64,000 nt of DNA from Paramesorhizobium deserti (GTDB taxonomy: Bacteria; Pseudomonadota; Alphaproteobacteria; Rhizobiales; Rhizobiaceae): NCBI RefSeq assembly GCF_001558695.1, contig NZ_LNTU01000038.1, positions 248,001 through 312,000 of the forward strand. Direction: 5' to 3'. Of the stretch, positions 14,739 through 61,472 are shown piece by piece. Each line of letters starts with the position of its first letter. Positions within the stretch are counted from its first letter, which is position 1. The position numbers and the translations under genes are program-made. The notes beneath the pieces are model-generated. The model worked only from the letters and a program-made list of their open reading frames with translations. It was not told where the DNA came from and did not search any database.

Positions 14739-14747
14739 TGACGTGAA

Positions 14748-14774
14748 GCGGTTTGCCGGTATCCGGCAAGCCGC
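14748..14774 (+). repeat. Stem-loop between tctC and tctB
   Basis: GCGGTTTGCCGG, loop TAT, CCGGCAAGCCGC: a 12-bp stem with one G-U pair, 9 nt after the tctC stop, followed by CTTTCC. It could limit read-through into tctBA or protect the 3' end of tctC mRNA. Confidence 0.65.
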
Positions 14775-14807
14775 CTTTCCTCTTCGTGCAAACGACGGAG
14801 AAAATCG

Positions 14808-15266
14808 ATGTCGGACAAAACAAAAAGTACATCCCTTGCCGGAAGAGTAGGCGGCGTCTGTCTTCTCGCCCTGGCGGTCGCCTATGGTATCGGCGGCAGC
14901 CGGATCGAATATGCCTTTGCGTCCGATCCGCTCGGGCCGCGGGTGATGCCGGTCGCGCTGGCGATCGTGCTTGGCATCTTGTGCCTGTTCTACCTGCGAA
15001 AGCCGGGAATAGCCGAGGCTTTCCCGACCGGACCGCTTCTCGTCAAGACACTCGCCGTTCCAACACTCATCATCATTGCCGTACTTCTTCTGGAGCCGCT
15101 CGGCTTTGCTGCGTCGATCTTCATCCTGACGGCGGGAGTGGGCTGGGTCTTCGGTGCGCCGCTGCGCAAGGCGCTGATCGGCGCCGCCGGGCATGCTCTC
15201 CTGTGGTGGTTCGTCTTCTCCTGGCTGCTTGAGGTCTATCTGCCGAAGGGCACGCTTTTCGGCTAA
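14808..15266 (+). CDS. tctB: Tripartite tricarboxylate transporter small membrane subunit TctB
   Basis: A 152-residue integral membrane protein with four predicted hydrophobic segments (about 12-30, 40-62, 78-100, 118-140), the size and topology of TctB. It contains DPLGPRVMPVALAIVLG, typical of the family. It partners TctA in the inner membrane. ATG 14808 follows GGAGAAAATCG. It lies 34 bp upstream of tctA, with no stem-loop in that junction. Confidence 0.9.
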   Translation: MSDKTKSTSLAGRVGGVCLLALAVAYGIGGSRIEYAFASDPLGPRVMPVALAIVLGILCLFYLRKPGIAEAFPTGPLLVKTLAVPTLIIIAVLLLEPLGFAASIFILTAGVGWVFGAPLRKALIGAAGHALLWWFVFSWLLEVYLPKGTLFG

Positions 15267-15300
15267 GCCGGAAGCGGGGAACCTGACCGAGGATATTTCC

Positions 15301-16809
15301 ATGAATCTCGAATATCTCTGGGGCGGCTTTTCCGTTGCCCTCACACTGCAGAACCTGACAATCGGCTTCATCGGCTGTTTCATCGGCACGATGGTCGGCG
15401 CACTGCCGGCGATCGGCCCGATCAATGGCATCGCGCTGCTCTTGCCGATCGCCTATACGATGGGCCTGCCGCCGGAAAGCACGATGATCCTGCTTGCCTC
15501 GATCTATTGCGGCGCCGAATATGGCGGGCGGATTTCGTCCATCCTGCTCAACGTGCCGGGCGACGCCGGCGCAGTGATGAGCGCCATCGACGGCTATCCG
15601 CTGGCGCGCCAGGGCCGTGCCGGCGAGGCGCTGATGCTGAGCGGGCTTGCCTCCTTCGTCGGCGGCATGATCGGCGCGACCGGTCTGGCGCTGTTTGCAC
15701 CGCTGCTCGCCGGCCTCGCCACGGGCTTCGGTCCGGCTGAATATTTCGTGCTGATGGTCTTCGCCTTCGCCACGCTCGGCTCCATGGTCGGCAGCCAGCC
15801 GGTGAAGACGCTTATCGGCTGCACGCTCGGGCTGATGCTTGCGACGGTCGGCCTCGATGCGACGTCCGGCGCCTACCGCTTCACCTTCAACGAGCCGGAA
15901 CTTGGCGACGGCATCGAGTTCGTGGTGCTGGTGATCGGGCTTTTCTCGATTTCCGAAGCGCTTATCATCCTCGAAAACCAGGCTTCAGGCTTCACTGTCA
16001 TCAGGCAGCTTGGGCGGATGATCGCGCGGGCCGACGATATTCGCAAATCCGTCGGTACTGCGTTGCGCAGCGCCGTGATGGGCTTCGTCGTCGGCGTGCT
16101 GCCGGGCGCCGGGGCCTCGGTGTCGAGTGCGATCGCCTACACCACCGCCAAGCGCCTGTCGGACACCGAGGGTACTTTCGGCAAGGGCGATGTGCGTGGC
16201 CTGGCGGCTCCAGAGGCCGCCAACAACGCCACCGCCTGCGGCGCCTTCGTGCCGATGCTGACGCTGGGCGTGCCGGGCTCCGGCACCACCGCCGTCATGC
16301 TCGGCGCGCTGATGCTCTACAACATCCAGCCGGGTCCGATGCTGCTCACCGAGCGTCCGGAGATTGTTGGCGGCCTGGTCGCCTCGCTCTTCATCGGCAA
16401 TATCCTGCTGTTGATCCTCAACCTGCCGCTCGTCAACCTGTTTGCCCGTGTCTTGACGGTGCCGAACTGGCTGCTCGTGCCGGGCATCCTGGTCCTGTCG
16501 ATCGTCGGTGTCTATTCCACCCACGCGTCGAGCTTCTCGGTGCTCCTGATGCTCGGGATCGGCATGGTGGGCTGGCTGTTGCGCAAGCTGGGCTTCGATA
16601 TGGCGCCGATCATCCTCGGCTTCGTGCTCGGCCACGTCATGGAGATCAATCTGCGCAACGCGCTGGCGATCAGCGGCGGAGACATCTCCATTCTGTTCCA
16701 GAGCAAGATTTCGCTGGTGCTGTGGGTGCTTGCCGCTGCAATGGCCGCTCTTCCGGTTTTCCTGAGCCGGCGGGCGAAGAAGCGGCTGAAAGCCACCGCG
16801 CCGGCCTGA
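15301..16809 (+). CDS. tctA: Tripartite tricarboxylate transporter large permease TctA
   Basis: A 502-residue protein with about 12 membrane segments, the usual TctA length. Family motifs are visible: GALPAIGPINGIALLLPI near the N-terminus, ILLNVPGDAGAVMSAIDGYP, and GVLPGAGASVSSAIAYTTAK plus GVPGSGTTAVMLGAL in the second half, an internal repeat of the PG(A/S)G type. The start at ATG 15301 has AGGA upstream; longer in-frame starts overlap tctB and are unlikely. It forms the translocation pathway with TctB for the substrate delivered by TctC. It is convergent with a GntR regulator gene 24 bp away. Confidence 0.95.
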   Translation: MNLEYLWGGFSVALTLQNLTIGFIGCFIGTMVGALPAIGPINGIALLLPIAYTMGLPPESTMILLASIYCGAEYGGRISSILLNVPGDAGAVMSAIDGYPLARQGRAGEALMLSGLASFVGGMIGATGLALFAPLLAGLATGFGPAEYFVLMVFAFATLGSMVGSQPVKTLIGCTLGLMLATVGLDATSGAYRFTFNEPELGDGIEFVVLVIGLFSISEALIILENQASGFTVIRQLGRMIARADDIRKSVGTALRSAVMGFVVGVLPGAGASVSSAIAYTTAKRLSDTEGTFGKGDVRGLAAPEAANNATACGAFVPMLTLGVPGSGTTAVMLGALMLYNIQPGPMLLTERPEIVGGLVASLFIGNILLLILNLPLVNLFARVLTVPNWLLVPGILVLSIVGVYSTHASSFSVLLMLGIGMVGWLLRKLGFDMAPIILGFVLGHVMEINLRNALAISGGDISILFQSKISLVLWVLAAAMAALPVFLSRRAKKRLKATAPA

Positions 16810-16833
16810 CCGGCGCGGGTATCCGTCATTTTC

Positions 16834-19191: not shown

Positions 19192-20178
19192 ATGAAATAT
19201 TTTGGAAAATTCAGCGCCGCACTGGCGCTTTCCGCATCGCTGCTGGCGTCGATCGCCGCCGCGGGTGCGCAGGAGCTGGTGCTGAAATCCGCCGACACCC
19301 ATCCGGACGGCTATCCGACTGTGGAAGCCGTCAAATATATGGGCGAACTTCTTAAGCAGAAGACCAATGGCCGCATCGGTATCGAGGTCTTCCATTCGCG
19401 CCAGCTCGGCGAGGAGAAGGAAACCATCGAGCAGACGCAGTTCGGCGTCATCGATCTCAACCGCGTCAACATGGCGCCGTTCAACGGCATCGTGCCGGAA
19501 ACCGTCGCGCCTTCGCTGCCCTATATCTTCCGTTCCAAGGAGCATATGCGCACCGTGATGGATGGTCCGATCGGCGACGACATCCTGAAGGCCTTCGAGG
19601 CGCAGCAATTGATCGGCCTTGCTTTTTATGATTCTGGCGCGCGTTCCTTCTATAATTCCAAGAAGCCGATCAAGACGATCGACGATCTGAAGGGCATGAA
19701 GTTCCGCGTCATCCAGTCGGATCTCTTCGTCGACATGGTCAACGCGCTTGGCGCCAACGCCACGCCGATGGCCTATGGCGAGGTCTATTCCGGCATCCAG
19801 ACGGGGCTTATCGACGGCGCGGAGAACAACTGGCCGAGCTATGAATCCTCCAAGCACTACGAGGTCGCCAAATATTATTCGCTCGACGAGCATTCCATGT
19901 CCCCGGAAGTGCTGGTGATGTCGAAGAAGAGCTGGGACAAGCTCTCGCCGGAGGATCAGCAGGCGGTGCGCGAAGCGGCGAAGGAATCCGTCGGCAAGAT
20001 GCGCGAACTCTGGGATGCCAAGGAAAAGGAATCGCAGAAGATTGTCGAGGAGGCTGGCGTCGAGGTCACACACCCTGACAAGCAGCCCTTCATCGACGCG
20101 ATGAAGCCGGTCTACGAGAAATTCGCCAATACCGATGTTCTGAAGGATCTGGTGAAGCGTATTCAGGAGACGCAGTAA
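19192..20178 (+). CDS. TRAP transporter substrate-binding protein (DctP family), uronate operon
   Basis: A 328-residue periplasmic protein with a signal peptide ([20 protein letters not shown], cleavage after GAQ or nearby, about residue 26). DctP hallmarks: [62 protein letters not shown] with the carboxylate-binding Arg, and [23 protein letters not shown] 19192 follows GGGAGGAGAAGAC. It sits between uxaC and kdgF/kduI/kduD, so the ligand is probably a hexuronate or an unsaturated (oligo)uronate. The gap of 221 bp to the small permease gene is filled by a RIME-like element. Confidence 0.93.
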
Positions 20179-20186
20179 ACACGGAA

Positions 20187-20360
20187 GCGAGAGGGCTTTT
20201 TCGGAAGTCCTCTCGCAAGTTCCTCGCAGGCACCGACTATTTGGCCTTCGGGCCGTCTTCTCCCCGGTGGGGAGACGGACGTCGAGGGGAATGTCAGTGC
20301 CTCTTCTCCCCGATGGGGAGAGGGTGGCTCGCAAAGCGAACAGGTGAGGGGACGCGAAAA
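20187..20360 (+). repeat. RIME-like palindromic element between dctP and dctQ-type genes
   Basis: Several stems in a row: GCGAGAGG...CCTCTCGC (20187-20216, extendable to 13 bp capped by TTCG), TCTCCCC-GGT-GGGGAGA (20259-20275) and TCTCCCC-GAT-GGGGAGA (20305-20321), then GGTGGCTCGCAAAGCGAACAG and GTGAGGGG. The repeated TCTCCCC/GGGGAGA blocks and the tail match the Rhizobium-specific intergenic mosaic element type; related copies are at 30209-30337 and 34601-34683. Confidence 0.75.
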
Positions 20361-20399: not shown

Positions 20400-20921
20400 A
20401 TGCAGACCGCCATGCGGCAAAGCGCTGCCGTTCTATCCCGCATCTCGACGCTTGCCCTATGGGCAGCCGGCATCGGTCTCGTCCTGATGACGGCCTTCAC
20501 CGGATGGCAAGTGTGGGCGCGCTATGTCCTCAACGCTTCGCCAAGCTGGACCGAGCCGCTTTCCGTTCTTTTGATGAATTGGTTCATCTTCCTGGGCGCC
20601 GCCGTCGGTGTGCGTGAGGGCTATCATCTCGGCTTCGACGTGCTTTTGTTCCTGCTGCCGGAGAAGGGCAAGGCGGTGCTGCGCACGATCAGCGATATGG
20701 CGGTCCTCTTTTTCGGCGTAGGCATGGTCTGGTACGGCTTTGATCTGGCGCGCGGCACCTGGTCGGCGGTGATGCCGTCGCTGCGCCTACCGGTCGGCGT
20801 CGATTACCTGCCCATCCTCGGCGGCGGCGTTCTCATCGTTCTTTTCACACTTGAGCGTCTCGCACGCCGCTTTTCCGGCCAGGAAAAGCTGGACGTCGAG
20901 ATGATCGACGCGACGGCCTGA
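20400..20921 (+). CDS. TRAP transporter small permease (DctQ family)
   Basis: A 173-residue protein with four membrane helices (about 15-37, 52-72, 92-112, 135-155), the standard DctQ layout. WQVWARYVLNASPSWTEPLS is the family signature around helices 1-2. The ATG at 20400 has AAGGATCGTGTC upstream; a longer open frame starting at 20241 would translate the repeat element and is rejected. It is 9 bp upstream of the large permease gene. Confidence 0.9.
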   Translation: MQTAMRQSAAVLSRISTLALWAAGIGLVLMTAFTGWQVWARYVLNASPSWTEPLSVLLMNWFIFLGAAVGVREGYHLGFDVLLFLLPEKGKAVLRTISDMAVLFFGVGMVWYGFDLARGTWSAVMPSLRLPVGVDYLPILGGGVLIVLFTLERLARRFSGQEKLDVEMIDATA

Positions 20922-20930: not shown

Positions 20931-22211
20931 ATGGCACTCACAGTTCTTTTCGGCACTTTCGTCCTGCTTCTCCTGATTGGGACGCCGATCGCGTTCTGCC
21001 TGGGGATCGCATCCTTCGCCACGGTTCTTTATCTCGGCATTCCGCCGGTGGTGGTTTTCCAGCGCATGAATGCCGGCGTCAGCACCTTCGCGCTGATGGC
21101 GATCCCGTTCTTCATCTATGCTGGCGACCTCATGGTGCGCGGAGGCATAGCGCAGCGGCTGGTCGCTTTCGCGGGTTCCCTGTTCGGCCATCTGCGCGGC
21201 GGGCTGGGGCAGGTGAATATCGCCGCCTCCACGCTTTTCGGCGGCATCTCCGGTTCCGCTGTGGCGGATGCCTCGGCGATCGGTGGGTTGATGATCCCGC
21301 AGATGAAGGCGCGTGGCTATGGCGTCGATTATGCCGTCAACGTCACCGTGACGAGCGCCATCATCGCGCTGATGATCCCGCCCTCGCATAATATGATCAT
21401 CTATTCGATCTCGGCGGGCGGCATGATCTCGATCGCCGATCTCTTCACCGCCGGCATCATTCCCGGGCTCCTGCTTGCGGTCGTCCTGATGGTTGCCGCC
21501 TGGGCCGTCGCCAAAAGACGTGGCTATCCGCTCGGACAGTTTCCGGGGTGGGTTGCGGTTGCGCAGCTGGCGGTGGCCGCCATCCCCGGCCTGATCCTGA
21601 TCGGCATCATTTTCGGCGGCGTGCGTTCAGGCGTTTTCACCGCGACGGAAAGCTCCTGCATCGCCATCCTCTACGCGGTCCTCATCACCATAACCGTCTA
21701 CCGTTCGATGTCGCTGAGCGACTTCGCCGAGGCAACGATGGGCGCGGTGCGCACCACGGCGATGGTGCTCCTCATCATCGGTGCCGCCGCCTCCTTCGGC
21801 TGGCTGCTCGCATTCCTGCGCGTGCCGGCAACGATGATCGCCTTCATGCAGTCGATATCGAGCGAGCCGCTTGTCATCTTCCTGCTGATCAATGTTCTGC
21901 TGCTCTTCCTGGGCACCTTCATGGACATGTCGCCGCTGATCATCATCACCACTCCGATCTTCCTGCCGGTCGTCCAGGCCTATGGCATGGATCCCGTGCA
22001 TTTCGGTGTGCTGCTCGTGCTCAATCTCGGTATCGGCCTGTGCACGCCGCCCGTGGGCGCGGTGCTTTTCGTTGGCTGCGCGGTGGGCAAGATCAGGATC
22101 TGGGAGGCGATGCGCACGATCTGGCCGTTCTATTGCGGCGCGCTCGCTGTGCTGATGCTGGTCACCTACATCCCGGCGCTGTCGTTGTGGCTGCCGAAAC
22201 TGTTTCATTAG
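20931..22211 (+). CDS. TRAP transporter large permease (DctM family)
   Basis: A 426-residue membrane protein with about 12 helices, typical DctM length. Motifs: IPFFIYAGDLMVRGGIAQRL, GGISGSAVADASAIGGLMIP, IPPSHNMIIYSISAG and FLGTFMDMSPLIIITTPIFL, with LNLGIGLCTPPVGAVLFVG near the C-terminus. It forms the ion-coupled uptake channel with the DctQ subunit for the substrate carried by the binding protein at 19192. ATG 20931 follows GAGGCAGATCA. Confidence 0.94.
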   Translation: MALTVLFGTFVLLLLIGTPIAFCLGIASFATVLYLGIPPVVVFQRMNAGVSTFALMAIPFFIYAGDLMVRGGIAQRLVAFAGSLFGHLRGGLGQVNIAASTLFGGISGSAVADASAIGGLMIPQMKARGYGVDYAVNVTVTSAIIALMIPPSHNMIIYSISAGGMISIADLFTAGIIPGLLLAVVLMVAAWAVAKRRGYPLGQFPGWVAVAQLAVAAIPGLILIGIIFGGVRSGVFTATESSCIAILYAVLITITVYRSMSLSDFAEATMGAVRTTAMVLLIIGAAASFGWLLAFLRVPATMIAFMQSISSEPLVIFLLINVLLLFLGTFMDMSPLIIITTPIFLPVVQAYGMDPVHFGVLLVLNLGIGLCTPPVGAVLFVGCAVGKIRIWEAMRTIWPFYCGALAVLMLVTYIPALSLWLPKLFH

Positions 22212-25192: not shown

Positions 25193-26278
25193 TTACCGCA
25201 GCGCTTTTCCATCCGCGTCAAAGAGGTGCAGCTTGGCCGGATCGGCGGTCAGGCGCGCCTTGTCTCCGCGCTCGAAGGGCTGGTTACCGGGAAGCTTGGC
25301 GATCAGCGGTTCCTCGCCGGACAGGCCCTCGACATAGAGAAGCGTGACCTCGCCCAGCGCTTCGATGATCGAGATCGTGCCCTCGATGATGAAATCCTCG
25401 CCAGTGGCGATCATCAGATCCTCCGGCCGCACACCGAAGCTCACCGCCGCGCCCTTTTGCGTTTCCGGCGTGGCGATATCGAGCGTGATCTGCCGGTTCT
25501 GCGGAAGGGCGACCGTGGTCTTCGCGCCGGTGTCGACGATCGTGGCGGGAATGATATTCATCGCCGGCGAACCGATGAATTTGGCGACGAAGAGATTGGC
25601 CGGGCGCTCATAGAGCTCCATCGGGGCGCCGACCTGTTCGATAACACCGCGTGACAAAACGACAATGCGATCGGCAAGCGTCATCGCTTCCACCTGATCG
25701 TGGGTGACATAGATCATGGTGGTGTCAGGCATTGCCTCGCTGAGCTTGGCGATCTCGATGCGGGTCGCCACGCGAAGTGCGGCGTCGAGGTTCGACAGGG
25801 GTTCGTCGAAGAGGAATACCTTCGGGTCGCGGCAGATCGCCCGTCCGATGGCTACGCGCTGGCGCTGGCCGCCGGAAAGTGCTTTCGGCAGGCGGTCGAG
25901 ATAATCGGTCAGTTGCAGGATATTCGCCGCCGAGCGCACGCGGCGATCGATCTCCTGCTTCGATTCCCGCGCGATGCGCATGCCGAAGGCCATGTTGTCA
26001 TAGACCGTCATGTGCGGGTAAAGCGCATATGACTGGAACACCATGGCGATGCCCCTTTTTGACGGCGGAACATCGTTGACCATCTCGCCGCCGATTTCCA
26101 GCGTGCCGCCGGAAATATCCTCGAGCCCGGCGATCATCCTGAGAAGGGTCGACTTGCCGCATCCGGAGGGGCCGACGAAGACGATGAATTCGCCTTCCTC
26201 GATTTCCAGGTCGATCCCGTGGATCACCTTGACGTTGCCATAGGACTTCTGGATGTCCTTCAAACGTACTGCCGTCAT
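25193..26278 (-). CDS. aglK: Alpha-glucoside ABC transporter ATP-binding protein
   Basis: A 361-residue MalK/UgpC-type ATPase. The nucleotide-binding domain occupies about 1-235: Walker A GPSGCGKST, Q-loop VFQSYALYPHMTV, signature LSGGQRQRVAIGRA, Walker B VFLFDEPLSNLD and switch VTHDQVEAM. The C-terminal TOBE/regulatory domain (about 240-361) carries VRPEDLMIATGEDFIIEG. It energises the AglFG membrane pair and is the last gene of the aglEFGAK order known from Sinorhizobium meliloti. ATG 26278 follows GGAGGGAGGGACACT, 17 bp after aglA. Confidence 0.94.
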   Translation of the reverse strand: MTAVRLKDIQKSYGNVKVIHGIDLEIEEGEFIVFVGPSGCGKSTLLRMIAGLEDISGGTLEIGGEMVNDVPPSKRGIAMVFQSYALYPHMTVYDNMAFGMRIARESKQEIDRRVRSAANILQLTDYLDRLPKALSGGQRQRVAIGRAICRDPKVFLFDEPLSNLDAALRVATRIEIAKLSEAMPDTTMIYVTHDQVEAMTLADRIVVLSRGVIEQVGAPMELYERPANLFVAKFIGSPAMNIIPATIVDTGAKTTVALPQNRQITLDIATPETQKGAAVSFGVRPEDLMIATGEDFIIEGTISIIEALGEVTLLYVEGLSGEEPLIAKLPGNQPFERGDKARLTADPAKLHLFDADGKALR

Positions 26279-26295: not shown

Positions 26296-27975
<1,680 letters not shown>

Positions 27976-27996: not shown

Positions 27997-29148
27997 TCAA
28001 CCGCCCTTGACCGATCCCGCCAGAAGGCCGCGGACCAGGAAGCGCTGGAGACTGAAGAAGACGATCAGCGGAACGATGATCGTGATGAAGGCGGAGGCAG
28101 TGAGGATTTCCCAATTGCCGCCGCGCGATCCCAGGAGATTGACGAGGCGCCCGGTCAGCACCAGCTGGTCGTCGCGCGAACCCAGGAAGACGAGGGCGAC
28201 GAGCAGATCGTTCCACGTCCACAGGAACTGGAAGATCGCGAAGGAGGCGAGCGCCGGGAAGGACAAGGGCAGCACGATCTTGACGAAGATGTCGAAATCG
28301 CTGGCGCCATCGACGCGCGCAGATTCCATGATTTCCCTGGGAAGACCCGCAATGTAGTTGCGAAGGAGATAGATGGCGAGCGGCAGGCCGAAGCCTGTAT
28401 GAGCGAGCCAGATGCCGAGATAGCCCTTGGGCGATACGCCGAACTGCGCCCCGATGTCGTTATAGAGCCGGAGGAGCGGAATGAGCGACATCTGCAGCGG
28501 TACGACGAGAAGGCCGACCACCAGCGCGATGAGAAGCGCCCGGCCGGGAAATTTCATCCAGGCGAGCGCATAAGCCGCGAAAGCCGCGATCAGGATCGGG
28601 ATGACGGTGGAGGGGATCGCCACCGTCAGCGAGTTGATGAAGGACTGGCCAAGGCCCTGGGCGCTCAGCACTTCGCGATAATTGTCGAGCGTGAACTGCG
28701 GCGGCACGGAGGTGGTGTAGAAGATACGCTCGCCGCGCCGTCCCTTCATCGGTTCGGCGGAGGAGATGGTGAAATCGCCGTTTTCCGCCACCGTCATGGT
28801 CACTCCGTCGGACAAGGTCGCGGTCTCTCCAGCCTCGAACTCATCAGGCGTTTGCACGGAATTGCCAAAGGCGGACACGGTGCCGGTGCCGCCGTCGAAG
28901 ACATTGCCGGTAATGACATAACGGCCGTTCTGCTCGACCTGGGTATCGGGCGCCGGCGCGCGGTAGACCGCGTTCTGCTTGGACGGCGCCAAGGCCGTCC
29001 ACCATCCGGAAACCGCGATCTGGTCCTTGTCGCGTAAGGAGGAGATCAGCAGGCCGGCCGTGGGCAGGGTCCAAAGGACGACGAGGAAGAGAACCGTGAG
29101 ATGGACCACGAAGGTGAGGGGCGAGCGGCGTGAGGAAGACCCGATCAT
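27997..29148 (-). CDS. aglG: Alpha-glucoside ABC transporter permease AglG
   Basis: A 383-residue MalG-type permease. Helix 1 is at about 10-35; the other five are at about 165-375, with the EAA loop NYIAGLPREIMESARVDGA that docks on AglK. Between helix 1 and helix 2 (about residues 40-155) lies a soluble, Gly/Thr-rich, probably beta-sheet segment (VEQNGRYVITGNVFDGGTG), which makes the protein about 100 residues longer than ordinary MalG-type subunits; this length is also seen in known AglG. The start lies 1 bp after the aglF stop. Confidence 0.93.
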   Translation of the reverse strand: MIGSSSRRSPLTFVVHLTVLFLVVLWTLPTAGLLISSLRDKDQIAVSGWWTALAPSKQNAVYRAPAPDTQVEQNGRYVITGNVFDGGTGTVSAFGNSVQTPDEFEAGETATLSDGVTMTVAENGDFTISSAEPMKGRRGERIFYTTSVPPQFTLDNYREVLSAQGLGQSFINSLTVAIPSTVIPILIAAFAAYALAWMKFPGRALLIALVVGLLVVPLQMSLIPLLRLYNDIGAQFGVSPKGYLGIWLAHTGFGLPLAIYLLRNYIAGLPREIMESARVDGASDFDIFVKIVLPLSFPALASFAIFQFLWTWNDLLVALVFLGSRDDQLVLTGRLVNLLGSRGGNWEILTASAFITIIVPLIVFFSLQRFLVRGLLAGSVKGG

Positions 29149-29149: not shown

Positions 29150-30160
29150 TCAGCGTCCCTCCATCTCTTTGGCGGCGTTGCGGATATTCCAGACCATGAT
29201 CGGGATGACCAGGATCATGATAATCATGGCAATGGTGGCGCCGCGGCCGAAATCGCCGCCGCCGCGGAACATCCAGTTGAACATCAGATTGGCGAGCACC
29301 TGCGTGTTCCACTGGCCGTTGGTCATCGCCAGCACGATATCGAAGACCTTGAGAACCAAGATGGTGATGGTGGTCCAGACCACGGCGATCGTGGCCCAGA
29401 TCTGCGGCACCATGATCTTAAAGAAAATCTGGAGACCGCTGGCGCCGTCGATGACCGCCGCCTCGATGGTTTCCTCGGGGATTCCGCGCAGCGCCGCCGA
29501 CAGGATCACCATGGCGAAGCCGGTCTGGATCCAGATGAGGATGACCATGAGGAAGACGTTGTTCCAGAAAGGCAGGGTGATCCAGGCTTCCGGCGTGCCG
29601 CCGAAATAAGTGACGATGGCGTTGAGGATGCCGATCTGCTCGGTTCCTTGCGGGCGGTAATCATAGACGAATTTCCAGATCACCGACGCACCCACGAAGG
29701 AGATCGCCATCGGCATGAAGATCAGGGACTTGGCGATATTGCCCCACCATATCCGGTCGGTCAGCGCGGCGATGATCAGGCCGAAAAAGGTGGTCGCCGC
29801 CGGCACGATGAGGAGCCAGAGAAAATTGTTGAAAATCGATTGGCGGAACTCGCCGTCGCCAGCCATCCAGCGGTAATTGCCTAGACCGACGAACTGCTGT
29901 CCGTCCTTGCCATGGAAGCTGAGCCAGGCGGATTCGATGACGGGATAAACCAGATAGACGGTCAGTGCGAGGAGTGCGGGGGCGAGGAACAGCCATGGTC
30001 TGATCATGTTGCTTCTGCGCAGATTGCGTGAAGCGGCGGCGCCGCTGCGGCCCTTTGAAGGGAAAATCCAGTCCAGCGCCCAGTTGCTGGCGATGAAATA
30101 GATCGCACAGCCGGCGACCCCGATGATCATGGTGAACAGGGCAAAAAGAAGCTGCTGCAT
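29150..30160 (-). CDS. aglF: Alpha-glucoside ABC transporter permease AglF
   Basis: A 336-residue MalF-type permease with an extra N-terminal helix (about 3-25) followed by the usual six membrane segments. The EAA motif is in ALRGIPEETIEAAVIDGASG, the contact site for AglK. It pairs with AglG to form the channel. ATG 30160 follows GGGGGAGGAATCCG. The 188 bp separating it from aglE contain a RIME-like palindromic element, the only long gap inside the operon. Confidence 0.93.
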   Translation of the reverse strand: MQQLLFALFTMIIGVAGCAIYFIASNWALDWIFPSKGRSGAAASRNLRRSNMIRPWLFLAPALLALTVYLVYPVIESAWLSFHGKDGQQFVGLGNYRWMAGDGEFRQSIFNNFLWLLIVPAATTFFGLIIAALTDRIWWGNIAKSLIFMPMAISFVGASVIWKFVYDYRPQGTEQIGILNAIVTYFGGTPEAWITLPFWNNVFLMVILIWIQTGFAMVILSAALRGIPEETIEAAVIDGASGLQIFFKIMVPQIWATIAVVWTTITILVLKVFDIVLAMTNGQWNTQVLANLMFNWMFRGGGDFGRGATIAMIIMILVIPIMVWNIRNAAKEMEGR

Positions 30161-30208
30161 TCGGATTCCTCCCCCGGGTTGATTACGCTGGACGGCGGTC
30201 TTGAAAGC

Positions 30209-30337
30209 CTCTCACCGGTTCTTCGGGCGACCTCTCCCCCGCAAGCGAAGGTGAGGAGACGCAGCGGCAATGCTTGGCGCCTCTCTTCTCCCCCACGACG
30301 TGAGGGAGAAGTGGCGAGTGTAGCGGGCCGGTGAGAG
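30209..30337 (-). repeat. RIME-like palindromic element between aglE and aglF
   Basis: Bounded by a perfect 10-bp inverted repeat, CTCTCACCGG (30209-30218) and CCGGTGAGAG (30328-30337). An internal hairpin CTTCTCCC...GGGAGAAG is at 30285-30311. It shares the TCTCCC/GGGAGA plus GTGGCGAG-type core with elements at 20187-20360 and 34601-34683. Confidence 0.75.
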
Positions 30338-30348
30338 CAGCTTGGCTC

Positions 30349-31707
30349 CTACTTGATGGCATCCCAGGCTGTCTGCGCTTCCTTGGCCGCATCCTCGGCG
30401 GACTTGCCGCCGACAAAGTCGACCATGGCAGTCCAGAAGGCGCCTGCGCCGATCTTGCCTGGCATCAGGTCCGAACCGTCAAAACGGAAGGTGGTGGCCT
30501 CCGCCAGGATCTGGCCCTGCTTTTTCAGGATATCATTGGCATAGGTATCAGGATTGACGGCCTTGTAGGGCGTGAGAAAGCCCGATTGCGCCATCCACAC
30601 CTCATGTGCGATCGGCGTCTTCAGGAACTCGATGAAGGCCTGCGCGGCGGGGCTGTCCTTGGTAATCATGGCGAGCGTGCCGGCGCCCAAGACCGGCTTG
30701 CCCAACTCCGGCTTGCTCGCATAGGGCGGGAAATAGAAGAAATCGGCATCCACGCCCAGTTCCGTCCCCTGCGGGAAGAAGGATGAGATGAACTGCGCCT
30801 GATGGTGCATGTAGCATTTCGGCGGCAGCGAGAAGAGACCGTCAGGGCTTTCTCGGAAATCGGTCGTCGCGACCGCGGCGGTGCCGCCGGCGACGAATTT
30901 CGGATTTTTGGCGAACCAGCCGAACTCATCGATGGCATTGACCACCGCAGGGTCGGTAAAGGGTATTTCGTTGGTTACCCATTTATCATAGGTCTCCGGC
31001 GACGCGGTGCGCAACATCAGATCCTCGACCCAATCGGTGGCGGGCCAGCCGGTGGCGCCGCCCGAGCCGAGACCGATACACCATGGCGTGCCGCCATCGG
31101 CGACGATCTTCTCTGTCAATGCCTTCAGATCCTCCATGGTCTGGGGGATCTCGTAGCCCGCGTCCTCGAAATTCTCCGGCGAATACCAGACGAGCGATTT
31201 CACGTCGGCCTTGTAGGGGAAGGCGTAGAAATGCTCTTCGCCATCCTTGCCCTTGTAATTGCCGAGCTGCACCCAGGAATCGCCGGCTGCATAGTTATCA
31301 AGGACGAACTTCTTCGTGTCTTCGCCGAGCGGAGTGAGCAGCCCCTTGGACGCGAGATCGGCGATGAGGCCGGGCTGCGGCAGGATGGCGATATTGGGTG
31401 GACTGCCGGCCTGGGTGTCGATGACGATCTGCTGTTCGTAATTCTCCGAGGACGAATATTCGAGCTTGGCGCCGGTGGCGTCCTCGAAATAGGCGGCGAG
31501 GGACTTGAACAATGTTTCGTCCTCGCCGCGCCAGGGGCCGAACACCGTCAGGGTCTGGCCGCTCAGATCATGGCCGGCCTTGAAATCCTCATAGCTCTTC
31601 CAGTTGAAGCGCGCGTCCTCGCCCGGCTTGAACTTCAGATCCGCGGCCTGGGCAAAGGTGGCGCATAGCGCAGCCACCGCAACGCCCAAAAGAAATGTCC
31701 TTCGCAT
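30349..31707 (-). CDS. aglE: Alpha-glucoside ABC transporter substrate-binding protein
   Basis: A 452-residue periplasmic binding protein, first gene of the agl operon. Signal peptide MRRTFLLGVAVAALCATFAQ ends after AQA (about residue 21). Mature features are typical of CUT1 proteins: GQTLTVFGPWRGEDETLFKS, FPYKADVKSLVWYSPENF and the C-terminal AAKEAQTAWDAIK. It captures alpha-glucosides such as sucrose, maltose or trehalose for AglFGK (known for the family). ATG 31707 is chosen for the CAGGGAGGATATTCG ribosome binding site; the longer frame from 31794 crosses an operator. Confidence 0.93.
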   Translation of the reverse strand: MRRTFLLGVAVAALCATFAQAADLKFKPGEDARFNWKSYEDFKAGHDLSGQTLTVFGPWRGEDETLFKSLAAYFEDATGAKLEYSSSENYEQQIVIDTQAGSPPNIAILPQPGLIADLASKGLLTPLGEDTKKFVLDNYAAGDSWVQLGNYKGKDGEEHFYAFPYKADVKSLVWYSPENFEDAGYEIPQTMEDLKALTEKIVADGGTPWCIGLGSGGATGWPATDWVEDLMLRTASPETYDKWVTNEIPFTDPAVVNAIDEFGWFAKNPKFVAGGTAAVATTDFRESPDGLFSLPPKCYMHHQAQFISSFFPQGTELGVDADFFYFPPYASKPELGKPVLGAGTLAMITKDSPAAQAFIEFLKTPIAHEVWMAQSGFLTPYKAVNPDTYANDILKKQGQILAEATTFRFDGSDLMPGKIGAGAFWTAMVDFVGGKSAEDAAKEAQTAWDAIK

Positions 31708-34600: not shown

Positions 34601-34683
34601 CACCCCTTATCCGGCCACTTCGCTGCTACCTTCTCCTCCAAGGGGAGAAGGTGGCGGAGCAAAGCGAGGTCGGATGAGGGGTG
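34601..34683 (+). repeat. RIME-like palindromic element between binding-protein and permease genes
   Basis: Outer stem CACCCCTTATCCG / CGGATGAGGGGTG (34601-34613 and 34671-34683, one wobble). An inner hairpin ACCTTCTCC...GGAGAAGGT forms an 11-bp stem when extended, and ACTTCGCT/AGCGAGGT makes a third pairing. This is the cleanest RIME-type structure in the window. Confidence 0.85.
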
Positions 34684-34738: not shown

Positions 34739-35635
34739 ATGGCTGGTGACAGAAAACCGCTCGGACTTTTCCGCAATCTCAACGCCAAGATTGCCGCGCT
34801 TCCGATGATCGCGACCGTGCTCGTCGTCTTCATCGGCTGCACGCTGTGGACGGTCGTTTATTCCTTCACCTCGTCGCGTTCGCTGCCGATGCTGAACTTC
34901 GTCGGCATCGACCAGTATACACGGCTATTCAAGTCATCGCGCTGGATGGTTTCGGTCGAGAACATCGCGATCTACGGCTGTCTGTCGCTGGTCTTTTCCA
35001 TCGTTGTCGGCTTCATCCTTGCCGTCTTCATGGACCAGAAGATCCGCTTTGAGAACACGTTCCGCACAATCTTTCTCTATCCCTTCGCGCTGTCCTTCAT
35101 CGTCACCGGTCTCGTCTGGCAGTGGATCCTTAATCCGCTCGGCATCGAGAAGGTGGTGCGCGATCTGGGCTTCGAGAGCTTCAACCTTCCCCTGCTGACC
35201 GATCGCAGCCTCGTCATCTACGCCATCGTTATCGCCGGGCTCTGGCAGGGGACAGGCCTCGTCATGGCGCTGATGCTGGCTGGTCTGCGCAATATCGACG
35301 AGGAAATCTGGAAGGCGGCGCGTGTCGACGGCATTCCAACCTGGAAAACCTATGTCTTCGTCATCATCCCGATGATGCGCCCGGTCTTCGTCACCACGCT
35401 GGTGCTGATCGCGACCGGCATCGTCAAGCTCTATGACCTCGTTGTCGCCATGACCAATGGCGGCCCGGGCATCTCCTCGGAAGTACCGGCGAAATATGTC
35501 TACGACTTCATGTTCGCTTGGGCCAATCTCGGCCAGGGTCTCGCCGCGTCCACCGTCATGCTCACCACCGTGCTGATCATCCTCATTCCCTGGGCGATGC
35601 TCGAGTTCGGCGGCCGGAAAGGAAGGGCTGGATAA
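34739..35635 (+). CDS. CUT1 ABC transporter permease (MalF-type)
   Basis: A 298-residue inner-membrane permease with six hydrophobic segments and the EAA loop LRNIDEEIWKAARVDGIPTW. MIATVLVVFIGCTLWTVVYS is helix 1. ATG 34739 has AAGGAGAGGCCATTG upstream; an in-frame ATG at 34709 has no ribosome binding site. It partners the permease at 35637, 1 bp downstream. Confidence 0.92.
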   Translation: MAGDRKPLGLFRNLNAKIAALPMIATVLVVFIGCTLWTVVYSFTSSRSLPMLNFVGIDQYTRLFKSSRWMVSVENIAIYGCLSLVFSIVVGFILAVFMDQKIRFENTFRTIFLYPFALSFIVTGLVWQWILNPLGIEKVVRDLGFESFNLPLLTDRSLVIYAIVIAGLWQGTGLVMALMLAGLRNIDEEIWKAARVDGIPTWKTYVFVIIPMMRPVFVTTLVLIATGIVKLYDLVVAMTNGGPGISSEVPAKYVYDFMFAWANLGQGLAASTVMLTTVLIILIPWAMLEFGGRKGRAG

Positions 35636-54211: not shown

Positions 54212-55525
54212 ATGACCATCAAGAGACGTGATTTCATCGCCGGTTCCGCGGGCCTTGCCGGGCTCGCCGGGCTCAATTCACTGGGCATCCGCCCGTCATT
54301 CGCGCAGAGCGAGCCGACCTACAAGCCCGAGGAAGGTGCAAGCCTCAGGCTCCTGCGCTGGACGCCTTTCGTCCAGGGCGACGAGGATGCCTGGCTCGCC
54401 AATACGAAGAAGTTCACCGAGGCGACGGGCGTTCAGGTGCGCATCGACAAGGAAAGCTGGGAGGACATCCGCCCTAAGGCGGCCGTTGCCGCCAATGTCG
54501 GCTCGGGCCCGGATATGGTGATGTGCTGGTTCGACGATGCCCATCAGTATCCCGACAAGCTCATCGACATGACCGAACTCGCCAACTATCTCGGCGACAA
54601 GTATGGCGGCTGGTATGACGGCGTTCGCGGCTATGCCGTACGTGACGACAAATTCATCGCCATGCCGCTGACGGCGATAGGCAACGCCGTCTGTTATCGC
54701 GACAGCCATATGAAGGCGGCGGGCTTCAGCGAGTTTCCGAACGACACCGCGGGCTTCCTGGAACTCTGCAAGGCCTTGAAGGCCAAGGGCACGCCGGCCG
54801 GCTTTCCGCATGGCAAGGCCGTCGGCGACGGCAACAACTATGCCCATTGGCTCCTGTGGAGCCATGGCGGCAAGATGGTCGACGAGGAAGGCAAGGTCAC
54901 CATCAACAGCCCGGAGACGATCGCGGCCATCAACTATGCCAAGGAGCTCTACGCCACCTTCATTCCGGGCACCGAAAGCTGGCTCGACATCAACAACAAC
55001 CGCGCCTTCCTGGCCGGGCAGATTTCGCTGACGGCCAATGGCGTGTCTCTCTATTATGCCGCGAAGAAGGATCCGGCGCTCGCCGAGATCGCGGAGGACC
55101 TGCGCGCCACGAACTTCCCCGTCGGTCCTGTCGGCAAGAGCGTCGAGCTTCACCAGACGAGCTCGATCCTGCTCTTCAACCACTCGAAATATCCGGAAGC
55201 TGCCAAGGCCTACATCAAGTTCATGATGGAAGCCGACCAGATGAATGCATGGCTCGAGGGTTCCAGCGCCTATTGCTGCCAACCGCTCAAGGCCTTCGCC
55301 GACAATCCGGTCTGGAAATCCGATCCGATCCACGCGCCCTATGCCCGCGCGTCGGAGACCCTGCGGCCGAACGGCTATGCGGGCCCGCTTGGCTATGCCT
55401 CCGCGGGAACAATGGCAGACTACGTGCTTGTCGACATGTTCGCCACGGCGGTTACCGGCCAGATGTCGCCGGAAGATGCCGCGGCCGACGCGGAAAAACG
55501 CGCCAACCGCTATTATCGCGTCTGA
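54212..55525 (+). CDS. CUT1 ABC transporter sugar-binding protein with Tat-type signal
   Basis: A 437-residue binding protein. The N-terminus MTIKRRDFIAGSAGLAGLAG has the twin-arginine pattern R-R-D-F-I, so it is probably exported folded by the Tat pathway, unlike the other CUT1 binding proteins here, which have ordinary Sec signals. Mature motifs: LRLLRWTPFVQGDEDAWLAN, MVMCWFDDAHQYPDKLIDMT and GNAVCYRDSHMKAAGF. ATG 54212 follows GAGGAGGAGTAGC. It is followed 124 bp later, after a stem-loop, by two permease genes. The substrate is unknown. Confidence 0.9.
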   Translation: MTIKRRDFIAGSAGLAGLAGLNSLGIRPSFAQSEPTYKPEEGASLRLLRWTPFVQGDEDAWLANTKKFTEATGVQVRIDKESWEDIRPKAAVAANVGSGPDMVMCWFDDAHQYPDKLIDMTELANYLGDKYGGWYDGVRGYAVRDDKFIAMPLTAIGNAVCYRDSHMKAAGFSEFPNDTAGFLELCKALKAKGTPAGFPHGKAVGDGNNYAHWLLWSHGGKMVDEEGKVTINSPETIAAINYAKELYATFIPGTESWLDINNNRAFLAGQISLTANGVSLYYAAKKDPALAEIAEDLRATNFPVGPVGKSVELHQTSSILLFNHSKYPEAAKAYIKFMMEADQMNAWLEGSSAYCCQPLKAFADNPVWKSDPIHAPYARASETLRPNGYAGPLGYASAGTMADYVLVDMFATAVTGQMSPEDAAADAEKRANRYYRV

Positions 55526-55543: not shown

Positions 55544-55574
55544 GCGGACGGCTTCTCCCGGAGAGGCCGTCCGC
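55544..55574 (+). repeat. Stem-loop between binding-protein and permease genes
   Basis: GCGGACGGC (55544-55552) pairs with GCCGTCCGC (55566-55574), and an inner TCTC/GAGA extends it after one mismatch, with loop CCG. It lies 18 nt after the binding-protein stop; no U-tract follows. Confidence 0.65.
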
Positions 55575-55649: not shown

Positions 55650-56585
55650 ATGTCGATCACCCTACCGTCCGAGAAGACCGGCTTTTCATTTTCCGCTCTC
55701 ATGCAGAACGGAAAAATGCTTGCCTTTCTGTTCATGTTGCCGGCGGCTGTCTTTCTCGTCTGCTTTCTGACCTACCCGCTGGGGCTCGGCGTCTGGCTCG
55801 GCTTCACCGACACCCGCATCGGGCGTCCCGGAATATTCATCGGGCTGGAGAATTACGAATACTTGGCAAGGGATTCCGTCTTCTGGCTGGCCGTGTTCAA
55901 CACGATGCTCTATACGATCGTCGCCTCCATCCTGAAATTCGCCTTGGGCCTCTGGCTGGCACTGCTTCTCAACGAGAAGCTGCCTTTCAAATCCTTCTTC
56001 CGCGCGATCGTGCTCTTGCCCTGGGTGGTGCCGACGGTCCTTTCGGCGCTGGCCTTCTGGTGGATCTATGATGCCCAGTTCTCCATCGTCTCATGGTCGC
56101 TGATGGAGCTTGGCATCATCGACCGGCCCATCAATTTCCTCGGTGATCCCAACAACGCACGTGCATCGGTGATCGCGGCCAATGTCTGGCGCGGCATTCC
56201 CTTCGTCGCCATATCGCTGCTCGCCGGGCTGCAGACGATCCCGCAGTCGCTGCAGGAAGCGGCCTCGCTCGACGGGGCGACGAGTTGGCAGCGCTTCCGC
56301 TATGTGACGCTGCCGATGCTGACGCCGATTATCGCCGTCGTCATGACCTTTTCGGTGTTGTTCACCTTCACGGATTTCCAGTTGATCTACGTGCTGACCA
56401 AGGGCGGACCGGTCAATGCGACCCATCTGATGGCGACGCTTTCCTTCCAGCGCGGTATTCCCGGTGGACAATTGGGTGAGGGTGCGGCGATCGCGGTGGC
56501 GATGATACCCTTCCTGCTCGCCGCCATCATGTTCAGCTTCTTCGGTCTGCAACGCCGCAAATGGCAGCAGGGCGGCCAGGATTGA
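55650..56585 (+). CDS. CUT1 ABC transporter permease (MalF-type)
   Basis: A 311-residue permease with six membrane helices; KMLAFLFMLPAAVFLVCFLT is helix 1. The EAA loop is AGLQTIPQSLQEAASLDGAT. ATG 55650 has GGAGATGTCCG upstream; the very long open frame from 55245 overlaps the binding-protein gene and is rejected. It pairs with the permease 11 bp downstream. Confidence 0.92.
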   Translation: MSITLPSEKTGFSFSALMQNGKMLAFLFMLPAAVFLVCFLTYPLGLGVWLGFTDTRIGRPGIFIGLENYEYLARDSVFWLAVFNTMLYTIVASILKFALGLWLALLLNEKLPFKSFFRAIVLLPWVVPTVLSALAFWWIYDAQFSIVSWSLMELGIIDRPINFLGDPNNARASVIAANVWRGIPFVAISLLAGLQTIPQSLQEAASLDGATSWQRFRYVTLPMLTPIIAVVMTFSVLFTFTDFQLIYVLTKGGPVNATHLMATLSFQRGIPGGQLGEGAAIAVAMIPFLLAAIMFSFFGLQRRKWQQGGQD

Positions 56586-60176: not shown

Positions 60177-60200
60177 GGTGATCTGTTTTCCAAAAATGAC

Positions 60201-60214
60201 TATTGCGGGCAATA
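60201..60214. promoter_or_regulatory. Candidate operator upstream of the dehydratase gene
   Basis: TATTGC-GG-GCAATA, 6-bp arms, 25 bp before the dehydratase start codon in the divergent gap (60177-60381) shared with the TAXI-TRAP operon. The binder is unknown; the local GntR protein is one candidate. Confidence 0.35.
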
Positions 60215-60381
60215 AACAATCAGTCAGGCGCGCGGTCGTCAAGTCTCATCGCGGGCAAAGGCGCCGTTCTCGCACCCTTCAATACGGCATCATACACGTT
60301 TTAGTATTGCGCCGGTTGACAAGTTGCACCGGCTTTTCCATCCTCCCGCCTCAAATTAAGATTCCGTAAAGGGGAATGGAG

Positions 60382-61371
60382 ATGAATTTCAGCAAGATCC
60401 TGCGCCGGTTTTCGATAGGCGCCATCCTCGGTTCTCTGGTATTGGGAGCCACTTTCGCGGTCGCACAGGCTCCGACGTTTTTCCGTATCGGCACCGGCGG
60501 CACCGCCGGAACCTACTATCCCATCGGCGGGCTGATCGCCAACGCGATCTCCGGTCAGGGGGACAAGGGCGTTCCGGGCCTTGTCGCTACCGCTGTATCC
60601 TCGAATGGGTCGGTCGCCAACATCAACGCCATTCAGGGCGGTTCGCTGGAATCCGGCTTCAGCCAGTCCGACGTTGCCTACTGGGCCTATACGGGCACGG
60701 GCCTTTACGAAGGCAAGGGCAAGGTCGAGGACCTACGCCTGATCGCGACGCTCTATCCCGAGACGATCCATCTCGTCGCCCGCAAGGATGCGGGGATCAA
60801 ATCCGTGGCGGATCTCAAGGGCAAGCGCGTCTCGATCGATGAGCCGGGTTCAGGCACCATCGTCGATGCCCGCATCGTGCTGGCCGCCTACGGCCTTACG
60901 GAAAACGACATCAAGGCGGAACATCTGAAGCCTGGTCCGGCGGGCGAGCGCCTGCGCGACGGCGCGCTGGACGCCTATTTCTTCGTCGGTGGTTATCCGA
61001 CCGGTGCTATTTCAGAGCTTGCGACCTCGACCGGCATCTCGCTGGTGCCGATCTCAGGCCCGAAAGCCGATAAGCTCCTCGAAGAGTACAGCTTCTTTTC
61101 CAAGGATACCGTTCCGGCGGATACTTATAAGGGTGTAGAGGAAACGCCGACCATCGCCGTTGCCGCCCAGTGGGTGACGAGCGCCAAGCAGCCGGACGAT
61201 CTCGTCTACAACATCACCAAGGTGATGTGGAACGATGCGACCCGCGCCGCGCTCGATGCGGGTCATGCGAAGGGCAAGCTGATCACGCTCCAGAATGCGG
61301 TCACCAGCCTCGGCATTCCACTGCATCCGGGCGCGGAACGCTTCTACAAGGAAGCCGGCGTCCTGAAATAG
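60382..61371 (+). CDS. TAXI-family TRAP transporter solute-binding protein
   Basis: A 329-residue periplasmic protein: signal peptide MNFSKILRRFSIGAILGSLV with cleavage after AVAQA (about residue 29). The TAXI signature is FFRIGTGGTAGTYYPIGGLI, followed by LKGKRVSIDEPGSGTIVDAR and TPTIAVAAQWVTSAKQPDDL. TAXI proteins are structurally distinct from DctP and often bind dicarboxylates or amino acids such as glutamate. ATG 60382 is better spaced from AAAGGGG than the in-frame ATG at 60376. A strong stem-loop with a U-tract separates it from the permease gene. Confidence 0.93.
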   Translation: MNFSKILRRFSIGAILGSLVLGATFAVAQAPTFFRIGTGGTAGTYYPIGGLIANAISGQGDKGVPGLVATAVSSNGSVANINAIQGGSLESGFSQSDVAYWAYTGTGLYEGKGKVEDLRLIATLYPETIHLVARKDAGIKSVADLKGKRVSIDEPGSGTIVDARIVLAAYGLTENDIKAEHLKPGPAGERLRDGALDAYFFVGGYPTGAISELATSTGISLVPISGPKADKLLEEYSFFSKDTVPADTYKGVEETPTIAVAAQWVTSAKQPDDLVYNITKVMWNDATRAALDAGHAKGKLITLQNAVTSLGIPLHPGAERFYKEAGVLK

Positions 61372-61393
61372 GCGCGTTCAAGCTAAGATCGAC

Positions 61394-61429
61394 AGACGGC
61401 GGTCGCGGAAAATTCCGGGGCCGCCGTCT
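61394..61429 (+). repeat. Attenuator-like stem-loop between TAXI binding-protein and permease genes
   Basis: AGACGGCGGTC (61394-61404) pairs with GGCCGCCGTCT (61419-61429), 11 bp with one wobble, and an inner CGGA/TCCG pairing, followed by TTTTC. It has the form of an intrinsic terminator inside an operon. Confidence 0.7.
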
Positions 61430-61472
61430 TTTCAATGATAAGATTGTAAAGGCGTAACGGAGCGATATCGGC

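What the first reader, a model, noticed from the sequence alone, without database searches (positions are those of the whole stretch)
14739..61472. Every binding-protein/permease junction in six unrelated transport operons carries a stem-loop or palindromic element
Seen directly: the gaps after the binding-protein gene are 69 (tct), 221 (TRAP), 188 (agl), 163 (beta-mannoside), 124 (third ABC) and 101 nt (TAXI), and each holds a strong hairpin (14748-14774, 55544-55574, 61394-61429) or a RIME-like palindromic element (20187-20360, 30209-30337, 34601-34683). The other junctions within these transporters' membrane and ATPase genes are 34 nt or shorter and hairpin-free. Established: in E. coli, REP elements between malE and malF stabilise malE mRNA so that the binding protein is made in excess. 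Inference: this organism has repeatedly solved the same stoichiometry problem with different elements in TTT, TRAP, TAXI and ABC systems, including domesticated mobile repeats.
Basis: partly seen in the sequence, partly recalled or inferred. Interest (0 to 1): 0.75.

Follow-up and report, generated by a model that had tools for sequence, protein, structure and literature searches.

The report
RNA hairpins ending binding-protein genes
In this rhizobial bacterium, and in S. meliloti and other relatives, the gene for a nutrient-binding protein is usually followed at once by an RNA hairpin before the membrane-pump genes, probably so that more binding protein than pump is made; the hairpin persists while its sequence is swapped, sometimes for a mobile repeat.

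Summary
All six binding-protein (SBP)/permease gaps exist, and in each the best local hairpin in the first 90 nt beats at least 198 of 200 shuffles. In the sampled source genome, 52 of 78 testable SBP>permease gaps carry such a hairpin, against 49 of 337 codirectional gaps after non-SBP genes (p 2e-19). Half of Sinorhizobium meliloti pSymB repeats it: 15 of 20 against 31 of 191. "Every" is too strong genome-wide: 11 of 89 junctions have under 25 nt and 26 of 78 show no significant hairpin. The hairpin belongs to the 3' end of SBP genes, because SBP genes followed by something else have it too (29 of 39). In other genomes, 88 of 105 homologous junctions keep one. Within one genus, the agl, beta-mannoside and TRAP junctions differ in element (plain hairpin, RIME-like repeat, other repeat), while the tct and TAXI hairpins show compensatory pair changes. 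The principle (stem-loop after the SBP gene, SBP excess) is published for E. coli and Clostridia ABC importers. What is added is the breadth (TRAP, TTT, TAXI, Rhizobiales) and the turnover and recruitment of repeats. Differential expression itself is inferred, not shown.

The parts
13767..14738 (+). tctC, binding protein of a TTT transporter
   Evidence: Pfam TctC
14748..14774 (+). tctC 3' hairpin, 12 bp stem, loop UAU
   Evidence: rank 0/200; fold z -4.8 for the gap; three pairs with two-sided changes in the genus
14808..15266 (+). tctB, small permease (followed by tctA 15301-16809, gap 34 nt)
   Evidence: Pfam TctB
19192..20178 (+). dctP, binding protein of a TRAP transporter
   Evidence: Pfam DctP
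20183..20223 (+). plain hairpin just after dctP (GCGAGAGG...CCTCTCGC)
   Evidence: rank 2/200; same stem in two same-genus relatives, L243 and L244
20234..20353 (-). RIME-like palindromic repeat
   Evidence: model R1, E 6.8e-21 (a seed of that model)
20400..20921 (+). dctQ (followed by dctM 20931-22211, gap 9 nt)
   Evidence: Pfam DctQ; DctM
30349..31689 (-). aglE-type binding protein
   Evidence: Pfam SBP_bac_1
30208..30340 (-). RIME-like palindromic repeat between the SBP and first permease gene; best short hairpin rank 0/200
   Evidence: a model seed; fold of 30208-30338, z -3.7
29150..30160 (-). first permease of the agl-type operon (then 27997-29148 permease, 26296-27975 alpha-glucosidase-like, 25193-26278 ATPase-like)
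   Evidence: Pfam BPD_transp_1
   Evidence: Pfam SBP_bac_1/8
34601..34683 (+). RIME-like near-perfect palindrome, shorter form of the repeat
   Evidence: fold -60.2 kcal/mol, z -9.6, 0/200 shuffles; model R1 places it at 34604-34710 (a model seed)
34739..35635 (+). first permease of that operon
   Evidence: PF00528 hit
54212..55525 (+). binding protein of the third ABC operon
   Evidence: Pfam SBP_bac_8/1
55544..55574 (+). 14-bp-stem hairpin after that gene
   Evidence: rank 0/200; fold; one pair with two-sided change in the genus, not beyond shuffles
55650..56585 (+). first permease of the third ABC operon
   Evidence: PF00528 hit
60376..61371 (+). TAXI-type binding protein
   Evidence: Pfam NMT1_3
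61394..61429 (+). hairpin followed by a U run, terminator-like
   Evidence: rank 0/200; U-tract test; three pairs with two-sided changes in the genus
61473..63527 (+). fused TAXI permease, DctM type (my caller starts it at 61506)
   Evidence: Pfam DctM

Best explanation
Each element is an RNA hairpin formed at the 3' end of the SBP message inside the transporter operon. Most likely sequence of events: the whole operon is transcribed; RNase E-type cleavage destroys the permease part; the degrading 3'-5' exonucleases stop at the hairpin; a stable SBP-only message remains, so SBP is made in excess over the membrane subunits. A minority (the TAXI case in the window, up to about three in ten elsewhere) have a U tract and probably act as leaky terminators with the same outcome. 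Selection is on having a hairpin, not on its sequence, so plain hairpins drift by compensatory change and can be replaced by palindromic repeats that insert there. Shown: the hairpins, their specificity for SBP genes, their persistence in relatives, the differing elements at one junction, and the repeats. Inferred: cotranscription, processing or termination, SBP excess, and replacement as the history behind the differing elements.
For: Own genome: 52/78 SBP>permease and 29/39 SBP>other gaps have a significant hairpin, against 49/337 after other genes, 7/79 upstream of SBP genes (part of the 337) and 62/194 at convergent ends of non-SBP genes. Median gap 75 nt for SBP>permease (89) against -1 for permease>permease (102) and 1 for permease>ATPase (48). 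Replicated on S. meliloti pSymB 1-800,000 with automatic classes: 15/20 against 31/191. Homologous junctions: 95/112 in all, 88/105 outside the source genome, 63/72 of those with SBP identity of 60% or more. Two-sided changes: 3 pairs each in tct and TAXI. Differing elements within the genus with significant hairpins in 29/33 rows, the six window ones included. Most significant hairpins have no U tract: 15/52 have 4 or more U in 6 nt at the edge. Precedents: malEFG and four other E. coli ABC systems, the stabilised gene being the SBP (PMC5927463, passages); Clostridia (PMC9045158, abstract and passages); an alphaproteobacterial precedent for segmental mRNA stability, puf (PMC6238624, passages).
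Against: No expression data were available. 11/89 SBP>permease gaps have no room and 26/78 no significant hairpin, so SBP excess does not require it. On pSymB gaps upstream of SBP genes are not hairpin-poor (6/19), unlike the source genome. The malE-malF control passes only on the whole gap (8/200), not on the first 90 nt (42/200). Terminator-like sites are also enriched (15/78 against 2.0 expected), so the barrier may not be the main mechanism; and the share of U-tract hairpins after SBP genes (15/52) is not lower than after other genes (9/49). Compensatory counts are small (4 to 5 sequences each): for the third ABC they do not beat shuffles (409/500), and for TAXI one slid control also gives 3 pairs.
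Confidence: 0.7

Rival explanations
1. Leaky intrinsic terminators: RNA polymerase stops at a fraction of these hairpins, giving SBP-only transcripts, as in cellulolytic Clostridia.
For: 15/78 SBP>permease gaps have a hairpin with a U tract against 2.0 expected from shuffles; 10/237 in the gaps classed 'other'. The TAXI hairpin is followed by a U run, and so are four of its five same-genus relatives. All 16 stem-loops predicted in R. cellulolyticum terminated transcription, with lower U content than canonical terminators (PMC9045158, abstract and passages).
Against: 37 of 52 significant hairpins lack 4 or more U in 6 nt at the edge; I see no U run right after the agl, beta-mannoside and third-ABC elements; tct has only a short one (CUUUCC).
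Confidence: 0.3
2. Simple tolerance: SBP genes tend to have long gaps behind them, and repeats and palindromes accumulate there without function.
For: The longer SBP>permease gaps are mostly repeat-bearing (10/15 gaps of 160-280 nt resemble DNA elsewhere in the sampled intergenic set); RIME-like repeats sit also behind unrelated genes, two of which I read as glyA and guaB.
Against: Gaps without a recognised repeat are just as hairpin-rich (44/65); hairpins start at a median of 10.5 nt after the stop (13 nt after other genes); in the source genome gaps upstream of SBP genes are hairpin-poor (7/79; but 6/19 on pSymB); stems are kept by some two-sided changes.
Confidence: 0.12
3. The hairpins mainly make 3'-UTR-derived small RNAs or bind a regulator, and do not set stoichiometry.
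For: Bacterial 3'-UTR-derived sRNAs are well enough known to be reviewed (two review titles in the listing).
Against: Sequence differences inside one genus are hard to reconcile with base-pairing targets or a sequence-reading protein.
Confidence: 0.08

Closest known systems
malE-malF REP element, E. coli (differential mRNA decay)
   Same: Protective structure between SBP and first permease gene; SBP part of the message more stable (PMC5927463 passages); short malF-malG gap.
   Different: Here many different sequences, mostly single hairpins, also in TRAP, TTT and TAXI systems; no decay data.
Stem-loops downstream of 5' SBP genes in ABC importer clusters of cellulolytic Clostridia (PMC9045158)
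   Same: Same position and gene class; 87.3% of intergenic regions over 50 bp in 5' SBP clusters held stem-loops (passages).
   Different: Those act as internal terminators with U-rich tracts; here most hairpins lack a clear one. That survey covered ABC importers; the same paper reports at least 15 such stem-loops in E. coli.
RIME / REP-type palindromic repeats
   Same: Intergenic, palindromic, found in Rhizobiales; one further family at these junctions fits, by my reading, the CGTC-tagged REP pattern of PMC3733652 (passages).
   Different: Here a low-copy repeat with at least 22 places in the genome, 7 of the 20 whose surroundings I looked at lying directly behind SBP genes; identity with published RIME1 was not tested.
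puf operon intercistronic hairpin, Rhodobacter
   Same: Alphaproteobacterial operon in which segmental mRNA stability contributes to protein ratios (PMC6238624 passages).
   Different: Photosynthesis genes, not transport.

Membership tests
SBP-gene 3' stem-loop controlling transporter stoichiometry | Hairpin directly downstream of the SBP gene, between it and the permease gene, beyond chance | tested here: met
   6/6 in the window, 52/78 in the sampled genome, 15/20 on pSymB 1-800,000
SBP-gene 3' stem-loop controlling transporter stoichiometry | SBP transcript or protein exceeds permease | not testable with these tools
   no expression data held
Internal intrinsic terminator (Clostridia type) | U-rich tract after the stem | tested here: inconclusive
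   15/52 significant hairpins at the 3' edge; of the window six only TAXI met the test
REP-like exonuclease barrier (malE-malF type) | Stable hairpin without a U tract, upstream gene stabilised | tested here: inconclusive
   first half met for 37 of 52 significant hairpins; stabilisation not testable
RIME (Rhizobium-specific intergenic mosaic element) | Homology to published RIME1/RIME2 sequence | not tested
RIME (Rhizobium-specific intergenic mosaic element) | Repeated, palindromic, mostly intergenic, Rhizobiales-restricted | tested here: met
   six related copies; 22 places (a lower bound; 2 of 13 examined fall inside predicted genes); one copy as query hits 36 plasmid records, all from Rhizobium, Shinella, Neorhizobium, Phyllobacterium or Pararhizobium (plasmid collection only)

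The most novel reading that the evidence does not exclude
In Rhizobiales there is gene-class-specific selection for 'a hairpin, any hairpin' right after SBP genes of all SBP-dependent transporter classes. It is strong enough that within one genus the hairpin is rebuilt or replaced repeatedly, and interspersed palindromic repeats (RIME-like, CGTC-type REP and a terminal-inverted-repeat element) are retained there preferentially, so these junctions act as a sink that turns mobile repeats into expression-ratio devices.
Probability: 0.5. Interest if true: 0.7.

Novelty: new variant of a known kind. Interest (0 to 1): 0.55.

Why it matters
It turns an anecdotal rule (malE-malF) into a measurable property of one gene class in a group of Rhizobiales, including three non-ABC transporter types. 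It gives a natural series of interchangeable hairpins at the same junction, with and without repeats, for measuring how hairpin form sets protein ratios. It also suggests a concrete reason why some short palindromic repeats persist.

Tried and rejected
A first hairpin measure (span 70, whole gap) gave weaker but same-direction results (38/78 against 48/337 at rank 5 of 100 or better); it is dominated by long imperfect folds, so I added the span-45, first-90-nt measure. Both are reported; the second was chosen after seeing the first, and pSymB is the independent test of it.

Rfam found nothing in the window at gathering thresholds and ARAGORN no tRNA.

Blast-based repeat enrichment over all gaps of 60-400 nt was only borderline (14/65 against 31/245, p 0.058); it is strong only for gaps of 160-280 nt (10/15 against 10/61, p 0.0003). 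Motif-based counts with the RIME core taken from the window are partly circular; without the three window junctions p is 0.018.

Homologue loci were first mis-oriented in part; redone with tblastn. Two tct homologues (L193, L194) got a zero gap from a start mis-call; corrected, both with significant hairpins; they count as untested. The start of dctQ in L244 was corrected likewise.

The TAXI covariation alignment leaves out one of the six genus rows (L269), which has a different hairpin; tct and third ABC use all rows available (5 and 4).

Model R1 was run over 73 of the 124 homologue loci (agl, beta-mannoside, TRAP sets); the other three sets were not searched. The surroundings of 2 of the 22 RIME-like places (C1:104170, C3:47398) were not looked at.

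One merged region (C23:1-6548, a partial DctM hit at a contig end) was not fetched for the survey, and three region edges were trimmed.

An attempt to use an annotated plasmid failed: the pSymB stretches show no annotated features, so genes there were called by my own caller.

Literature searches whose listings brought nothing on Rhizobiales SBP/permease hairpins: (open-access library only).
Full report
WHAT WAS CHECKED. The window lies in a 5.48-Mb genome of 41 contigs (window = G000:C38:248001-312000); plasmid matches to part of it are mostly Rhizobium, Sinorhizobium and Agrobacterium. The TAXI gap is 101 nt to the ATG at 61473, or 134 nt to my predicted start at 61506. Pfam confirms the six binding proteins: TctC, DctP, three SBP_bac_1/8 and NMT1_3.

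THE SIX HAIRPINS. In the first 90 nt after each stop codon, the best single hairpin (span up to 45 nt) ranks 0, 2, 0, 0, 0 and 0 of 200 dinucleotide shuffles for tct, TRAP, agl, beta-mannoside, third ABC and TAXI. Independent folds agree: tct gap z -4.8, beta-mannoside palindrome z -9.6, agl element z -3.7, TAXI gap z -3.3, third ABC gap z -2.1. The RIME-like part of the TRAP gap folded alone is not striking (z -1.7, 10 of 200 shuffles as good), but the hairpin in front of it is (z -3.0). The four other within-transporter gaps that I folded have no structure beyond shuffles.

GENOME-WIDE SURVEY. I located permeases and SBPs by Pfam (PF01547 40 hits, PF00528 150, PF06808 31, PF02653 57) and took 119 stretches, giving with the window 1.48 Mb in 112 segments and 1302 genes; one small region was left out. 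Of 146 genes classed as SBP, 72 came from Pfam or phmmer and 74 from their N-termini, by eye, before any folding in scripts. For 88 of the 89 genes upstream of a permease, a Pfam scan matched mostly SBP families: SBP_bac_1 24, SBP_bac_8 20, DctP 19, SBP_bac_3 12, SBP_bac_5 11, with overlaps. That output does not list every member, so a few misassignments remain possible.

RESULT OF THE SURVEY. There are 89 SBP>permease junctions with a median gap of 75 nt, against -1 for 102 permease>permease and 1 for 48 permease>ATPase junctions. Eleven of the 89 have gaps under 25 nt and were not tested. Of the other 78, 52 have a significant hairpin (10 or fewer of 200 shuffles as good). Among gaps after non-SBP genes, 337 of 770 were testable (399 under 25 nt and 34 over 400 nt set aside) and 49 are significant. 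That gives p 2e-19, or 1e-16 without the window six. When something other than a permease follows the SBP gene, the rate is as high (29 of 39 testable, 50 in all). Upstream of SBP genes it is 7/79, and at convergent ends of non-SBP genes 62/194 (46/72 against 62/194 gives p 3e-6). So the hairpin is a feature of the SBP gene's 3' end, more common there than at convergent gene ends. By type, significant of testable: TRAP/TTT/TAXI and other non-BPD 13 of 21, BPD1 with PF01547 SBPs 17 of 23, BPD1 with other SBPs 17 of 29, BPD2 5 of 5.

REPLICATION. On S. meliloti 1021 pSymB 1-800,000, with gene classes assigned automatically by blastp to the first set, 15 of 20 testable SBP>permease gaps (21 in all) carry a significant hairpin against 31 of 191 others, p 1e-7. 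SBP>other is 8 of 10. Gaps upstream of SBP genes are 6 of 19 there, so the contrast with upstream gaps is weaker than in the source genome.

HOMOLOGOUS JUNCTIONS. Six searches over the source genome and 60 relatives gave 124 loci; these are best matches, down to about 40% SBP identity, so not all are orthologues. In 116 the permease follows, 112 were testable and 95 carry a significant hairpin. Outside the source genome it is 88 of 105, and 63 of 72 with SBP identity of 60% or more.

TURNOVER WITHIN THE GENUS. SBP coding DNA there is 81-92% identical to the window's, apart from two distant TRAP homologues at 73-75%. At agl and beta-mannoside the gap DNA is only 31-62% identical over its length; most pairs keep some similarity above shuffles, one (L215) none. 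At TRAP, two relatives share the plain hairpin and one close relative (95% SBP identity) has a different one. By eye and by model R1, the element is a plain hairpin, a RIME-like palindrome or a terminal-inverted-repeat element, depending on the species; R1 hits outside the source genome are L216, L159, L160, L170, L251 and L217, with E from 2e-7 to 0.009, so some are weak. Significant hairpins remain in 29 of 33 genus rows, the six window rows included. Two of the four exceptions (L159, L160) hold RIME-like palindromes wider than the test's span.

COMPENSATORY CHANGE. At tct, TAXI and the third ABC the same hairpin is alignable and shows 3, 3 and 1 pairs with two-sided changes. Paired cells exceed nearly all shuffles for tct and TAXI (5 and 3 of 500 reach them) but not for the third ABC (164 of 500). 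Pairs with two-sided changes are reached by 17, 30 and 409 of 500 shuffles, and one slid control of TAXI also gives 3. These alignments have only 4 to 5 sequences.

REPEATS. The three RIME-like elements of the window are related to each other and to three more copies in the sampled DNA. A covariance model of these six finds 22 places in the whole genome (a lower bound, since 150 of 3151 candidates were scored). Of the 20 whose surroundings I looked at, seven lie directly behind an SBP gene: the three window elements plus C39:277179, C39:33109, C12:324364 and C39:234915. Four of these seven (the window three and C39:277179) are model seeds. One copy used as query hits 36 plasmid records, all from rhizobial genera. 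A CGTC-tagged REP-like palindrome and a terminal-inverted-repeat element also occur at these junctions. Counting all three families by motif, 13 of 65 SBP>permease gaps of 60-600 nt hold one against 17 of 261 gaps after non-SBP genes (p 0.002); without the window three, 10/62, p 0.018, and per base 1.29 against 0.36 per kb, p 0.003. Gaps without any recognised repeat are equally hairpin-rich (44/65; with repeat 8/13), so repeats are a minority solution.

MECHANISM. Most hairpins lack a U tract: 15 of 52 significant ones have 4 or more U in 6 nt at the 3' edge, against 9 of 49 after non-SBP genes. Terminator-like sites are nevertheless enriched (15/78 against 2.0 expected; 10/237 in gaps classed 'other'; 17/166 at convergent ends). 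I therefore commit to a mixed picture: mainly a 3' barrier that stabilises the SBP message after cleavage downstream, with a minority of leaky terminators, both giving SBP excess. The outcome is inferred from precedent: E. coli, where the stabilised gene in five ABC operons was invariably the SBP (PMC5927463, passages); Clostridia, where stem-loops lie in 87.3% of the intergenic regions over 50 bp of 5' SBP clusters and terminate transcription (PMC9045158, abstract and passages); puf in Rhodobacter (PMC6238624, passages). The E. coli malE-malF gap passes my test only as a whole (8 of 200) and not in its first 90 nt (42 of 200), so the test can miss known cases.

VERDICT. A real, strong and specific pattern that extends a known principle to TRAP, TTT and TAXI systems and to Rhizobiales, with sequence turnover and repeat recruitment as the new part. 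I found no report of that part in the listings of searches of an open-access library, which is weak evidence of absence.

Noticed in passing
G000 C1:668792, C12:352187, C23:475728, C39:33292 junctions; L217, L251: A roughly 170-nt repeat with terminal inverted repeats (CCCCTCTGCCCTGCCGG type) and two inner palindromes, at several SBP/permease gaps and in sister-species homologues; it looks like a small non-autonomous mobile element.
   Followed up: partly
G000 C23:238676, C34:348528, C38:85655, C12:324481 junctions: CGTC-tagged REP-like palindromes (CGTCATCCTCGGG...CCCGAGGAT) in SBP/permease gaps.
   Followed up: partly
L143, L144: RIME-like copies also sit behind genes that I read as glyA and guaB, i.e. 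behind probably highly expressed genes.
   Followed up: no
whole genome G000: Transport-rich: 150 BPD_transp_1 (150 of 170 candidates scored), 57 BPD_transp_2 and 31 DctM matches.
   Followed up: no
G000:C41:57176-58369: A DctM-family permease reading frame with one internal TAG stop, possibly a pseudogene; only described.
   Followed up: no
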